Positions 27,610-29,908 of a stretch of 57,021 nt of DNA are shown piece by piece. This DNA comes from an uncultured Erysipelotrichaceae bacterium (lineage in GTDB: Bacteria > Bacillota_I > Bacilli_A > Erysipelotrichales > Erysipelotrichaceae), in assembly GCA_945877255.1 (NCBI GenBank), contig CAMCRE010000009.1, forward strand, positions 1 to 57,021. Direction: 5' to 3'. Under the pieces are notes generated by a model. It did not search any database. It had not been told where the DNA came from and worked only from the letters and a program-made list of their open reading frames with translations. Position 1 is the first letter of the stretch. Each line of letters starts with the position of its first letter. The position numbers were made by a program, and so were the translations under genes.

Positions 27610-28356
27610 ATGAAATTAGTATTAGTTAGACATGGTGAAAGTGAATGGAATAAATTAAACTTATTCACTGGATGGAAAGATGTTGATTTAAGTGATAAAG
27701 GAAGAGAAGAAGCTCGTGAAGGGGGTAAATTATTAAAAGAAGCTGGGTTTGATTTTGATGTTTGTTACACGAGTTATTTAAAAAGAGCTATTCACACATT
27801 AAATTATATTTTAGAAGAATTAGATCGTGAGTGGTTACCAGTTACAAAAAGCTGGAAATTAAATGAGAGACACTATGGTGCATTACAAGGGTTAAATAAA
27901 GCTGAAACAGCTGCTAAATATGGTGAAGATCAAGTTAAAATTTGGAGAAGATCATTTGATGTTACGCCGCCTGCGCTTGAAGAAACAGATGAAAGAAATC
28001 CAAGATTACAAGATCAATATCGTCAAGAAGAAGATAAATCAGTTTTACCATTAACTGAAAGTTTAAAAATTACAATTGAAAGAGCAGTACCATATTTTGA
28101 AGAAGTAATTAAAAAAGATATGTTAGCTGGAAAACGTGTTTTAATTACAGCACATGGTAATTCATTAAGATCATTAGTGAAATATTTTGATAACTTAACA
28201 GAAGATGAAATTATGGAAGTTAATATTCCTACAGGTGTACCTTTAGTATACGAGTTTGATGAAAATTTCAATGTTGTTAAAAAATATTATTTAGGTGATC
28301 AAGAAGCATTAAAAGCTAAGATGGAAAGCGTTGCTAACCAAGGAAAAACTAAATAA
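27610..28356 (+). CDS. gpmA: 2,3-bisphosphoglycerate-dependent phosphoglycerate mutase
   Basis: Glycolytic enzyme interconverting 3- and 2-phosphoglycerate. The phosphohistidine motif [10 protein letters not shown] is at residues 4-14, followed by [18 protein letters not shown] and [11 protein letters not shown] near 85-98 and the second catalytic histidine TAHGNSLR near 180 are intact. It has 248 residues, the normal length. ATG 27610 follows AGGAGG; the frame extending to 27559 lies over the promoter. It is monocistronic with a compound terminator, part of which is duplicated 0.95 kb downstream. Confidence 0.96.
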
Positions 28357-28358
28357 AC

Positions 28359-28405
28359 AAAAACACATGTCAATAGTAGAAAATTCTACTAAGACATGTG
28401 TTTTT
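28359..28405 (+). terminator. Strong nested-hairpin terminator of gpmA
   Basis: AAAACACATGTC and GACATGTGTTTT form a 12-bp outer stem. An inner AGTAGA/TCTACT hairpin sits in the loop, and T residues follow. The whole element recurs at about 29316-29362. Confidence 0.88.
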
Positions 28406-28452
28406 ATTTATTCGTAAGCTTTTATAAATTTCATGTATTGCGTAAATTAAGA
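28406..28452 (-). pseudogene. Remnant of the 76-aa membrane protein gene (C-terminal end)
   Basis: On the minus strand this encodes LIYAIHEIYKS, identical to the C terminus of the intact gene at 29360-29590. A one-base deletion then shifts the frame, and upstream sequence is unrelated. It is a truncated duplicate. Confidence 0.75.
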
Positions 28453-28529: not shown

Positions 28530-28552
28530 AAAAAGACATCCTAGTGGATGTC
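28530..28552 (-). terminator. Terminator of the 129-aa membrane protein gene
   Basis: On the minus strand AGACATCC-acta-GGATGTCT is followed by six T. The gene's stop codon lies in the loop. Confidence 0.85.
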
Positions 28553-28930
28553 TGATGATTGTTCATGTATGTTTTTGACACCAAAGTATATCGAAAACAT
28601 AAATAATATAAACGATATTATTATCAAAACATGCGATCCTATACTGAAATCATTAGCTGTAAGAGGAAAATATATTTTCATCTCAAATAATAAGCGATAT
28701 AACAACATTCCAAATATCGTAATACTAGATATGAGATTAATAATTTTAGCTGTTGTACTTTTTTGAATAGCAGTAATACACCATATTATACCTAATATAA
28801 CTGTTAATAATGGATGACGGTTCAATATTGATACTGGTGCACGATCCCATGTATTTTTCACATTTATAAAAATACCGATAGATAAAAACGCACAAATTTT
28901 TGAAATTTTATCATTGTCTAACAATCTCAT
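28541..28930 (-). CDS. Hypothetical multi-helix membrane protein in the accessory patch
   Basis: An unrecognised 129-residue protein with three to four hydrophobic segments (about 10-25, 43-60, 65-85 and 100-118) and a charged C terminus. The start at 28930 has GGAGG 5 bases upstream; the frame to 28942 would begin inside that site. It lies just downstream, on the same strand, of a decayed amidase-like gene and may belong to the same former operon. It is flanked by the two direct-repeat copies, suggesting acquisition or duplication with them. Confidence 0.65.
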   Translation of the reverse strand: MRLLDNDKISKICAFLSIGIFINVKNTWDRAPVSILNRHPLLTVILGIIWCITAIQKSTTAKIINLISSITIFGMLLYRLLFEMKIYFPLTANDFSIGSHVLIIISFILFMFSIYFGVKNIHEQSSDIH

Positions 28931-28974
28931 GTCTTCCTCCAATATTCTCCCAACCGTTTTTTGTCGAACTTGTC

Positions 28975-29164
28975 TACTCTAAATAATTACTTGTGTGTTG
29001 GGCCACTTTATAATCAAAAAATCTTTTTCCATGATAGTTAGCTGGGTAATTATCTGATGCTACTACAAATGCAACATGATCCCAGTCGTCATCATTTTCA
29101 TTATTTGAAGCAATAATTGTACCTTTATTTAATTGTGCTTCATTTGATAATTATATTTCTGTTA
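28975..29164 (-). pseudogene. Remnant of an amidase_6-like (cell-wall hydrolase) gene
   Basis: The minus strand encodes LNKGTIIASNN, DDDWDHVAFVV and a terminal VAQHTSNYLE before a stop. The WDHVxxV and QHTS patterns are typical of the C-terminal part of the putative amidase domain (PF12671). No start codon or N-terminal catalytic half is present in this frame; a TAA precedes it. It is a 3' fragment of a broken gene. The family call rests on recalled motifs only. Confidence 0.5.
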
Positions 29165-29218: not shown

Positions 29219-29306
29219 AATACCTCCTTTACAATATTTCTATCTATATCCTACTACACTGTCATTCTAACATTATTGATTTGAAAACGCAATCAAAATT
29301 ATATAG

Positions 29307-29409
29307 AAACTAAATAAAACACATGTCAATAGTAGAAGATTCTACTAAGACATGTGTTTTTATTTATTCGTAACGCTTTTATAAATTTCATGTATTGCGT
29401 AAATTAAGA
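29307..29409 (+). repeat. Direct repeat, copy B
   Basis: Second copy of the gpmA terminator region, starting with AAACTAAATA, which matches the last gpmA codons although no gpmA precedes it. Its right part is the intact 3' end of the 76-aa membrane protein gene. Its nested hairpin serves as that gene's terminator on the minus strand. Confidence 0.85.
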
Positions 29410-29590
29410 AAAAAGGAAAAATAATTAAACTGTTTCTAATTCCAAAATCAACAATATATGCTGAATTATTTAATCCGTTATCTGCTAGTTCAATCCCAAG
29501 TGTGAATATTGTTGAGAAATTTAAAAACATCCAAATAAGCATAATGACTAAAAATCCAATTTTAAGTATTTTATATATTTTAGTTTTCAT
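29360..29590 (-). CDS. Hypothetical 76-residue membrane protein
   Basis: Unrecognised protein with two hydrophobic helices (about 9-32 and 50-66), basic N terminus (MKTKIYKILK) and basic C terminus (YKSVTNK). GGAGGAAGAAATC precedes the ATG at 29590. The promoter TTGACT-N17-TATAAT is inside a near-palindrome of 75 bases just upstream. A frameshifted partial copy of its 3' end follows gpmA. No function can be assigned. Confidence 0.65.
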   Translation of the reverse strand: MKTKIYKILKIGFLVIMLIWMFLNFSTIFTLGIELADNGLNNSAYIVDFGIRNSLIIFPFFLIYAIHEIYKSVTNK

Positions 29591-29665
29591 GATTTCTTCC
29601 TCCGATTAGTTGGCTTTATTATAGCAATATAATATAATAAAGTCAACTAATCGGAGGAAGAAATC
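29591..29665. repeat. 75-bp near-perfect palindrome carrying a promoter and RBS on each strand
   Basis: GATTTCTTCCTCCGATTAGT and its following TG (29591-29612) are exactly reverse-complemented at 29644-29665, and the inner bases also largely pair. Minus strand: TTGACT-N17-TATAAT then GGAGGAAG for the 76-aa gene. Plus strand: TTGGCT-N17-TATAAT then the same GGAGGAAG, but no start codon follows (AAATCAAACC). Confidence 0.85.
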
Positions 29666-29908
29666 AAACCGCTATTTACGCTGACCGCTGTAACACAAAT
29701 AAATGGATTGATACAATAAACTATCCAATATTTAAGATTTGTGTAGGAAATACATTTAGTGTCAGAAGAGTAAATCTATTGAAATTTTATATTAAAAACA
29801 TAATTATGAGAAATAAGAACATATCCTCAAAAATAAACTAATGTTTAGTAAAATGAGAATACGTTCTTATTTTTTATTCATTATTGTATATCATCACTAT
29901 ATAAATAA
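29666..29908. other. Gene-free spacer with a long hairpin
   Basis: The plus strand is open for about 50 codons after the palindrome (NTNKWIDTINYPIF, then FKICVGNTF) without a start codon, so it may be a gene remnant; it was not recognised. The end holds the long hairpin at 29811-29876. Confidence 0.4.
29811..29876. terminator. Long hairpin, probable terminator beyond mfd
   Basis: AAATAAGAACATATCCTCA (29811-29829) pairs with TGAGAATACGTTCTTATTT (29854-29872) with two mismatches, and an inner ACTAA/TTAGT adds to it. A T run follows on the plus strand. On the minus strand it lies 33 bases after the mfd stop. Confidence 0.65.

What the first reader, a model, noticed from the sequence alone, without database searches (positions are those of the whole stretch)
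29591..29665. Palindrome with complete promoter and RBS on both strands
Each arm carries -35, -10 and GGAGGAAG. The minus side drives a 76-aa membrane gene, but the plus side drives nothing with a start codon. It may be an inverted duplication that once served two divergent genes, a switchable promoter, or a source of divergent RNA. Such palindromes can form cruciforms and are usually unstable.
Basis: seen in the sequence. Interest (0 to 1): 0.55.

Follow-up and report, generated by a model that had tools for sequence, protein, structure and literature searches.

The report
Mirror-image promoter before small membrane gene
A bacterial gene start (promoter plus ribosome-binding site) faces its own near-perfect mirror copy, which probably arose by a copying accident and may let the gene be translated only from its own promoter, not from RNA running in from a neighbouring gene.

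Summary
The palindrome is real: arms 29590-29623 and 29633-29666, 34 nt, 33 of 34 paired, 9-nt loop, the strongest inverted repeat in 357 kb sampled from this genome (score 31, next 19). Each strand reads a -35, a perfect TATAAT and GGAGGAAG. The minus side fits a 76-aa orphan membrane ORF. The plus side has no recognisable gene: its open frame lacks a start codon, has non-coding codon usage and gave no credible homologue.
Best reading: an inverted copy of the 76-aa gene's promoter-leader, made or perfected by template switching. The only arm mismatch is position 4 of the -35, and only the minus side has a TGn extended -10, so the gene side looks stronger.
A predicted consequence resembles phage T4 gene e: RNA from the gene's own promoter keeps its ribosome site free (-0.5 kcal/mol), while RNA reading in from the mfd side folds it into a -47 kcal/mol hairpin, stronger than at any of 127 control gene starts.
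It cannot be an orientation switch: inversion restores nearly the same sequence. No SbcD was found, but half of the family members checked also lack a clear one. Conservation could not be tested.

The parts
29590..29623 (-). left palindrome arm: -10 and leader with GGAGGAAG of the 76-aa gene (minus sense); also holds the plus-side -35
29624..29632 (.). 9-nt asymmetric loop; supplies the TGn extended -10 on the minus strand only
29633..29666 (+). right palindrome arm: mirror copy with plus-side -10 and GGAGGAAG; also holds the minus-side -35
29618..29646 (-). promoter of the 76-aa gene: TTGACT, 17 nt, TATAAT, TGn extended -10; inferred start of transcription near 29611
   Evidence: 11 of 12 matches; start site inferred
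29610..29638 (+). mirror promoter: TTGGCT, 17 nt, TATAAT, no TGn; inferred start near 29645
   Evidence: 10 of 12 matches; start site inferred
29613..29643 (.). the single mismatched pair of the arms (29613 against 29643): position 4 of each -35, A on the minus side, G on the plus side
   Evidence: read from the sequence
29360..29590 (-). 76-aa small membrane ORF, orphan
   Evidence: codon score 0.139; one clear hydrophobic segment, 19-residue windows starting at residues 4-16; no accepted relative, one weak hit with stops in 271 other genomes
29641..29841 (+). open frame without start codon behind the mirror promoter (66 codons plus stop); looks non-coding
29806..29877 (.). inverted repeat downstream of the mfd-like gene, folds as a hairpin on both strands; would end mfd RNA and any plus-side RNA; not among the 3 terminator-like sites of the consensus scan
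   Evidence: scan
29311..29368 (.). inverted repeat at the end of the 76-aa gene, likely terminator
28351..28452 (.). second copy of the 76-aa gene's last codons and terminator (95% to 29307-29409), beside the phosphoglycerate-mutase-like gene, with a 1-nt deletion in the coding part

Best explanation
The palindrome is an inverted copy of the promoter and leader of the 76-aa membrane gene, created or perfected by DNA-polymerase template switching at a smaller inverted repeat around the AT-rich -10 region (inferred). The working direction is the minus strand. Its promoter has the better -35, the extended -10 and a proper start codon at the edge of the palindrome (shown in sequence; activity inferred). 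The mirror promoter is a by-product that may fire a short non-coding RNA ending near 29880 (inferred). Because transcription from the gene's own promoter should start near 29611, inside the left arm, that mRNA lacks the right arm and keeps its ribosome site open. RNA entering from the mfd side carries both arms and locks the ribosome site in a hairpin of 33 pairs and one mismatch (shown by folding prediction; effect in the cell inferred). The gene would then be translated only from its own promoter.
For: Arms 33 of 34, strongest of 70 inverted repeats in 357,021 sampled bases (31 against next 19), 10 Markov controls at most 15. Nothing else in the genome matches the arms at E<=0.001. The only arm mismatch and the loop asymmetry both favour the minus promoter. 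76-aa ORF codon score 0.139, between the 95th (0.07) and 99th (0.22) percentile of wrong frames and between the 5th and 25th percentile of genes; plus frame beyond the palindrome -0.27, below the 1st percentile of genes (-0.12). Own-start RNA 29611 to 29560: -0.5 kcal/mol, z 0.6; read-through RNA 29680 to 29560: -47.3 kcal/mol, z -10.6, with the Shine-Dalgarno and the A of AUG paired. Of 127 control gene starts, 0 fold as strongly (best -27.1, here -46.8) and 0 have the Shine-Dalgarno as fully paired. Template switching is documented to turn quasipalindromes into more perfect ones (PMC7202029, abstract and passages). The lock logic is documented for T4 gene e (PMC3014915, passages).
Against: No transcript data. 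No relative with the locus was found, so neither age nor selection can be tested: of 59 other genomes, 3 have matches, four in all, 29-49 bases long and outside the arms. The mfd-like gene is followed by its own hairpin (29806-29877), so read-through may be rare. One mismatch in 34 positions is too little to prove selection on the -35. Which arm is the original is unknown. The 76-aa ORF is an orphan with a modest codon score and could be fortuitous. Only the A of the AUG is paired (mean pairing of the AUG 0.27). A hairpin this strong gives a physical lock without having been selected for it, and inverted repeats are generally enriched near transcription starts in prokaryotes (PMC13155455, passages).
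Confidence: 0.5

Rival explanations
1. Neutral accident only: a recent template-switch palindrome with no selected role. The promoter works for the 76-aa gene, the mirror side and the RNA hairpin have no consequence, and the structure will decay or be deleted.
For: Orphan locus amid decay: an Amidase_6 remnant at 28941-29150 and a duplicated, frameshifted tail at 28351-28452. No SbcD detected, so a palindrome could linger. The mfd-like gene has its own hairpin downstream.
Against: The palindrome ends exactly at the start codon and covers exactly promoter plus leader, which makes the RNA consequence hard to avoid whenever read-through occurs.
Confidence: 0.33
2. Divergent regulatory unit: the plus promoter makes a functional small RNA of about 235 nt (about 29645-29880) that shares its first 22 nt with the 76-aa mRNA leader and could act as a decoy or regulator.
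For: Complete plus-side promoter and a terminator-like hairpin; shared leader by symmetry.
Against: The body of the RNA (29645-29800) folds no better than shuffles (z 0.61); the whole RNA scores z -2.45, which the terminator hairpin seems to account for. No Rfam family at gathering score (12 matches at E<=1, all below gathering; the top four are miRNA models lying on the hairpin). No conservation data. The divergent RNAs do not overlap, so no antisense pairing between their starts.
Confidence: 0.1
3. Broken divergent gene: the plus arm is the true leader of a former plus-strand gene whose 5' coding end was lost, leaving the open frame to 29841.
For: 66-codon open frame ending inside the loop of the terminator-like hairpin.
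Against: Codon score non-coding. Not Amidase_6 (-0.3 bits, 427 of 952 scored shuffles as good or better). No Pfam or NCBIfam hit, one 30-residue PHROGs hit at E 0.0029. 21 of 194 other family genomes gave 25 weak matches, best E 0.005, 14 of the 25 with stops inside; plasmids none, viral contigs none accepted.
Confidence: 0.05
4. Assembly or amplification artefact (fold-back chimera).
For: Near-perfect palindromes are typical of fold-back artefacts in general (recalled); no reads available.
Against: Flanks differ right outside 34-nt arms, one arm mismatch, asymmetric loop, mid-contig in a 57,021-base contig, and both directions hold good promoter parts.
Confidence: 0.02

Closest known systems
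Phage T4 gene e (also soc, 49, I-TevI) leader lock
   Same: Long RNAs from upstream fold the ribosome site into a helix; for gene e, RNAs started at late promoters next to the gene lack the 5' part of the helix and are translated (PMC3014915, passages read).
   Different: Here the helix is a 34-nt near-perfect palindrome that also carries a second complete promoter and Shine-Dalgarno; host chromosome gene, sigma-70-type promoter, no timing switch known; effect only predicted.
Protection of transposase genes from outside transcripts (IS200; IS10 and IS50 recalled)
   Same: A hairpin occludes the ribosome-binding site, another ends impinging RNAs (IS200: PMC3196728, passages).
   Different: The two nearest minus ORFs (76 and 133 aa) match no transposase family in Pfam; a target-site duplication was only looked for by eye and not seen.
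Bacterial bidirectional promoters with shared -10
   Same: Symmetric promoter DNA pointing both ways; -35 changes alter transcription in their own direction (PMC12825309, passages).
   Different: In PMC10268837 (passages) they are defined by divergent starts 7-25 bp apart, usually 18; here two separate -10s give predicted starts 34 bp apart, and the symmetry runs through the Shine-Dalgarno to the start codon.
Quasipalindrome template-switch mutations
   Same: Known process that makes an imperfect inverted repeat more perfect (PMC7202029, abstract and passages).
   Different: Here no parental sequence is available, so the event is inferred.

Membership tests
Bidirectional promoter (shared -10; divergent starts 7-25 bp apart) | Predicted divergent transcription starts 7-25 bp apart | tested here: not met
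   -10 hexamers at 29623-29618 (minus) and 29633-29638 (plus); starts 7 bases on at 29611 and 29645, 34 bp apart; definition from PMC10268837. With the overlapping plus TATAAT at 29628-29633 (read) the distance would be 29, still outside. Start sites are predictions.
Bidirectional promoter (shared -10; divergent starts 7-25 bp apart) | Both directions transcribed | not testable with these tools
   needs strand-specific start-site mapping
T4 gene e-type leader lock | Ribosome site paired in long RNA, free in own-promoter RNA | tested here: met
   prediction only: -47.3 against -0.5 kcal/mol; Shine-Dalgarno pairing 0.9996, 0 of 127 controls as high
T4 gene e-type leader lock | Own promoter overlaps the region encoding the 5' strand of the helix, so its RNA lacks that strand | tested here: met
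   minus promoter 29646-29618 overlaps the right arm 29633-29666; activity not shown
T4 gene e-type leader lock | Measured fall in translation of the long RNA | not testable with these tools
   needs a reporter
Invertible (phase-variable) promoter | Inversion between the repeats changes promoter direction | tested here: not met
   arms 33 of 34 and both directions already present; inversion of the 9-nt loop cannot redirect the promoter
Invertible (phase-variable) promoter | Dedicated recombinase gene nearby | not tested
   ORF list was not scanned for recombinase families
Quasipalindrome template-switch product | Parental less perfect sequence in a relative | not testable with these tools
   no relative with the locus found in 59 other genomes, 271 other family genomes or genome contigs
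Insertion-sequence end or MITE | Other copies in the genome | tested here: not met
   only the two arms themselves match at E<=0.001 in 1.26 Mb

The most novel reading that the evidence does not exclude
A chromosomal 'mirror leader': one template-switch event copied a gene's whole promoter and ribosome site into its own upstream region, and so built in one step a selected lock that makes translation depend on which promoter made the RNA, with a weaker divergent promoter as a lasting scar. If relatives show the fold kept by compensating changes, it would be a new route by which regulatory RNA structure arises.
Probability: 0.15. Interest if true: 0.55.

Novelty: new variant of a known kind. Interest (0 to 1): 0.3.

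Why it matters
If the lock is real, a single copying error can give a gene insulation from its neighbour's transcription at the level of translation, a simple and testable origin for leader structures of the T4 gene e kind. It also gives a natural case of a promoter doubled by symmetry whose two directions differ by one -35 base and the extended -10. If neutral, it is a nice but ordinary mutational scar.

Tried and rejected
1) Plus-side frame as the N-terminal half of a split Amidase_6 gene: my first idea by eye; rejected (Pfam none; local profile -0.3 bits and 427 of 952 scored shuffles as good or better; of 1000 shuffles made, 48 received no score).

2) Relatives of the plus-side frame: 22 of 195 family genomes listed at E<=0.1, one being the own genome; the other 21 hold 25 weak matches (best E 0.005, 14 of 25 with stops) and are judged noise.

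3) Conservation of the palindrome: of 59 other genomes, 3 have four short matches (29-49 bases) outside the arms; the exact 23-nt leader is absent from viral contigs. Nothing to compare.

4) 76-aa ORF homologues: no Pfam, NCBIfam or PHROGs hit better than E 0.19; 1 weak hit with stops (G260) among 271 other family genomes; none accepted in genome contigs or viral contigs.

The first five rows are four Erysipelotrichaceae titles and one Solobacterium, 41-47% identity; later rows from other groups reach 49% over shorter stretches, so the placement is tentative. Their neighbourhoods were not read.

6) Rfam: 12 matches at E<=1, all below gathering score; rejected as fits to any long hairpin.

7) Invertible promoter: rejected on symmetry.

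8) A first inverted-repeat census with strict limits found only 3 repeats, all in the window; repeated with looser limits (70 repeats), which is the count used.

9) SbcD absence as the reason the palindrome survives: weakened. In one search only 12 of 24 other family members exceed the curated cut-off (16 of 16 from the other family of the order do), the control genomes exceed it in only 8 of 14, and PMC4245961 passages say E. coli with SbcCD tolerates a 246-bp interrupted palindrome if recombination works.

10) Literature: no paper on a mirrored promoter plus Shine-Dalgarno showed in the listings (titles and abstract starts) (1 paper; 0; 4); these searches are narrow and the library holds open-licence papers only.

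Full report
Observation. The palindrome is in the sequence as described, with limits 29590-29666: two 34-nt arms, 33 pairs, 9-nt loop. In 357,021 bases of this genome (the window plus 15 stretches of 20 kb) a census of inverted repeats with loops up to 40 nt gave 70 repeats; this one scored 31 and the next 19. Ten first-order Markov resamplings of the window gave 15 at most. It lies in the middle of the 57,021-base contig that is the whole window, in a 1.26-Mb, 98% complete genome. The window is 31% GC. The first five Mfd relatives listed are four Erysipelotrichaceae titles and one Solobacterium (tentative placement), and no genome of the same genus is among those. The names mfd and phosphoglycerate mutase for the neighbouring genes were given by eye, not by a family search.

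Anatomy. On the minus strand TTGACT, 17 nt, TGC-TATAAT leads to an inferred start at 29611, then a leader with GGAGGAAG, then the ATG of a 76-aa ORF (29590-29360); the palindrome ends at the A of that ATG. On the plus strand TTGGCT, 17 nt, TATAAT leads to an inferred start at 29645 and the same leader, but the palindrome stops one base into what would be the start codon, and the sequence goes on without ATG, GTG or TTG there. The single mismatched pair (29613 against 29643) is position 4 of each -35. Together with the TGn that the loop gives to the minus side only, it makes the gene-side promoter the better one (11 against 10 of 12 matches). One mismatch is not proof of selection, and the scan finds no more promoter-like sites in the region than in shuffles (20 against 22.0).

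Plus side. A frame of 66 codons (29641-29838) is open to TAA 29839-29841, and a hairpin that could end transcription spans 29806-29877, though the consensus terminator scan does not list it. The frame's codon score is -0.19, and -0.27 beyond the palindrome; genes of the window have a 1st percentile of -0.12 and a median of 0.39 over 232 segments (these are the genes the score was trained on), and wrong frames a median of -0.42 over 1164 segments. Another plus frame of the same stretch scores 0.05 but has stops. Searches gave no Pfam, NCBIfam or plasmid match, one short weak PHROGs hit (E 0.0029), 25 weak matches in 21 of 194 other family genomes and no accepted match in viral contigs. The body of a plus RNA (29645-29800) folds no better than shuffles (z 0.61); with the terminator hairpin the z is -2.45. 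I read the plus side as non-coding.

Minus side. The 76-aa ORF scores 0.139, low for a gene but above 95% (not 99%) of wrong frames, with one clear hydrophobic segment. It has no accepted relative, so it is an orphan and could still be spurious. Its last codons and terminator are duplicated at 28351-28452 beside the phosphoglycerate-mutase-like gene (95%). Between the copies lies a remnant of an Amidase_6 gene (28941-29150; 18.2 bits, below the Pfam cut-off; 16.7 bits for the fragment alone; 20.8 bits with a local profile). The neighbourhood is one of duplication and decay.

Mechanism. Folding predicts that RNA from the gene's own start is open (-0.5 kcal/mol), while RNA entering from the mfd side forms the full hairpin (-47.3 kcal/mol, z -10.6) with the Shine-Dalgarno and the A of the AUG paired. 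Among 127 control starts of long ORFs with a Shine-Dalgarno, none folds as strongly (best -27.1) or has it as fully paired. This is the logic established for T4 gene e (PMC3014915, passages). The step shown is the fold prediction. The steps inferred are the start site, the presence of read-through RNA past the mfd hairpin, and any effect on translation or fitness.

Origin. Template switching is known to perfect quasipalindromes (PMC7202029, abstract and passages), and the AT-rich -10 region is a natural seed (inference). Nothing else in the genome matches the arms at E<=0.001, so the second arm was most likely copied from the first. No parental form is available, so direction and age are open. 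SbcD was not found in this genome at E<=0.01; 13 of 14 control genomes match, 8 over the cut-off. Of 41 genomes (own included), 35 match at E<=0.01 and 28 exceed the curated cut-off, but only 12 of the 24 other family members do, so the absence is not special to this genome. PMC4245961 (passages) reports that SbcCD cuts hairpins from palindromes above about 20-36 bp in vitro, yet that E. coli tolerates a 246-bp interrupted palindrome when recombination works; the absence of SbcD may help but is not needed. The SbcC-like hits (4, best E 1.8e-5, all far under the cut-off) are probably other ATPases (inference).

Comparison. By predicted starts it is not a bidirectional promoter in the published sense: 34 bp apart, not 7-25 (PMC10268837). 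It is not an invertible promoter, by symmetry. It is not an insertion-sequence end or MITE with other copies. It works like the T4 gene e lock on paper; the effect is untested. Inverted repeats as such are enriched near transcription starts in prokaryotes (PMC13155455, passages), so the kind is common; the length and the mirrored ribosome site are what stand out.

Verdict. A real and striking scar with a predictable RNA consequence; moderate interest because the function is untested and no relative was found to show selection.

Noticed in passing
28351-28452 and 29307-29409: 102-nt direct duplication (95%) of the 76-aa gene's last codons and terminator; the copy beside the phosphoglycerate-mutase-like gene has a 1-nt deletion. 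RNA of that gene's 3' end would be complementary to the 3' end of the 76-aa mRNA, a possible antisense contact.
   Followed up: partly
28941-29150 (minus): Remnant of the C-terminal part of an Amidase_6 (PF12671) gene, the only match to that family in the genome at E<=10 (below the curated cut-off); a Shine-Dalgarno and ATG for a short broken frame lie upstream near 29220.
   Followed up: partly
28541-28942 (minus): 133-aa predicted membrane ORF with no family match better than E 0.08 and a near-neutral codon score (0.04), followed by a terminator-like hairpin at 28534-28553.
   Followed up: no
2845-2902: Second clear inverted repeat of the window (18 of 18 inner pairs, 22-nt loop; 25-nt arms at 92%), between two ORFs of the >=120-aa list, perhaps a terminator.
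   Followed up: no
whole genome G000: No SbcD (TIGR00619) detected at E<=0.01 although the genome is 98% complete; 12 of 24 other family members also lack one over the curated cut-off.
   Followed up: partly
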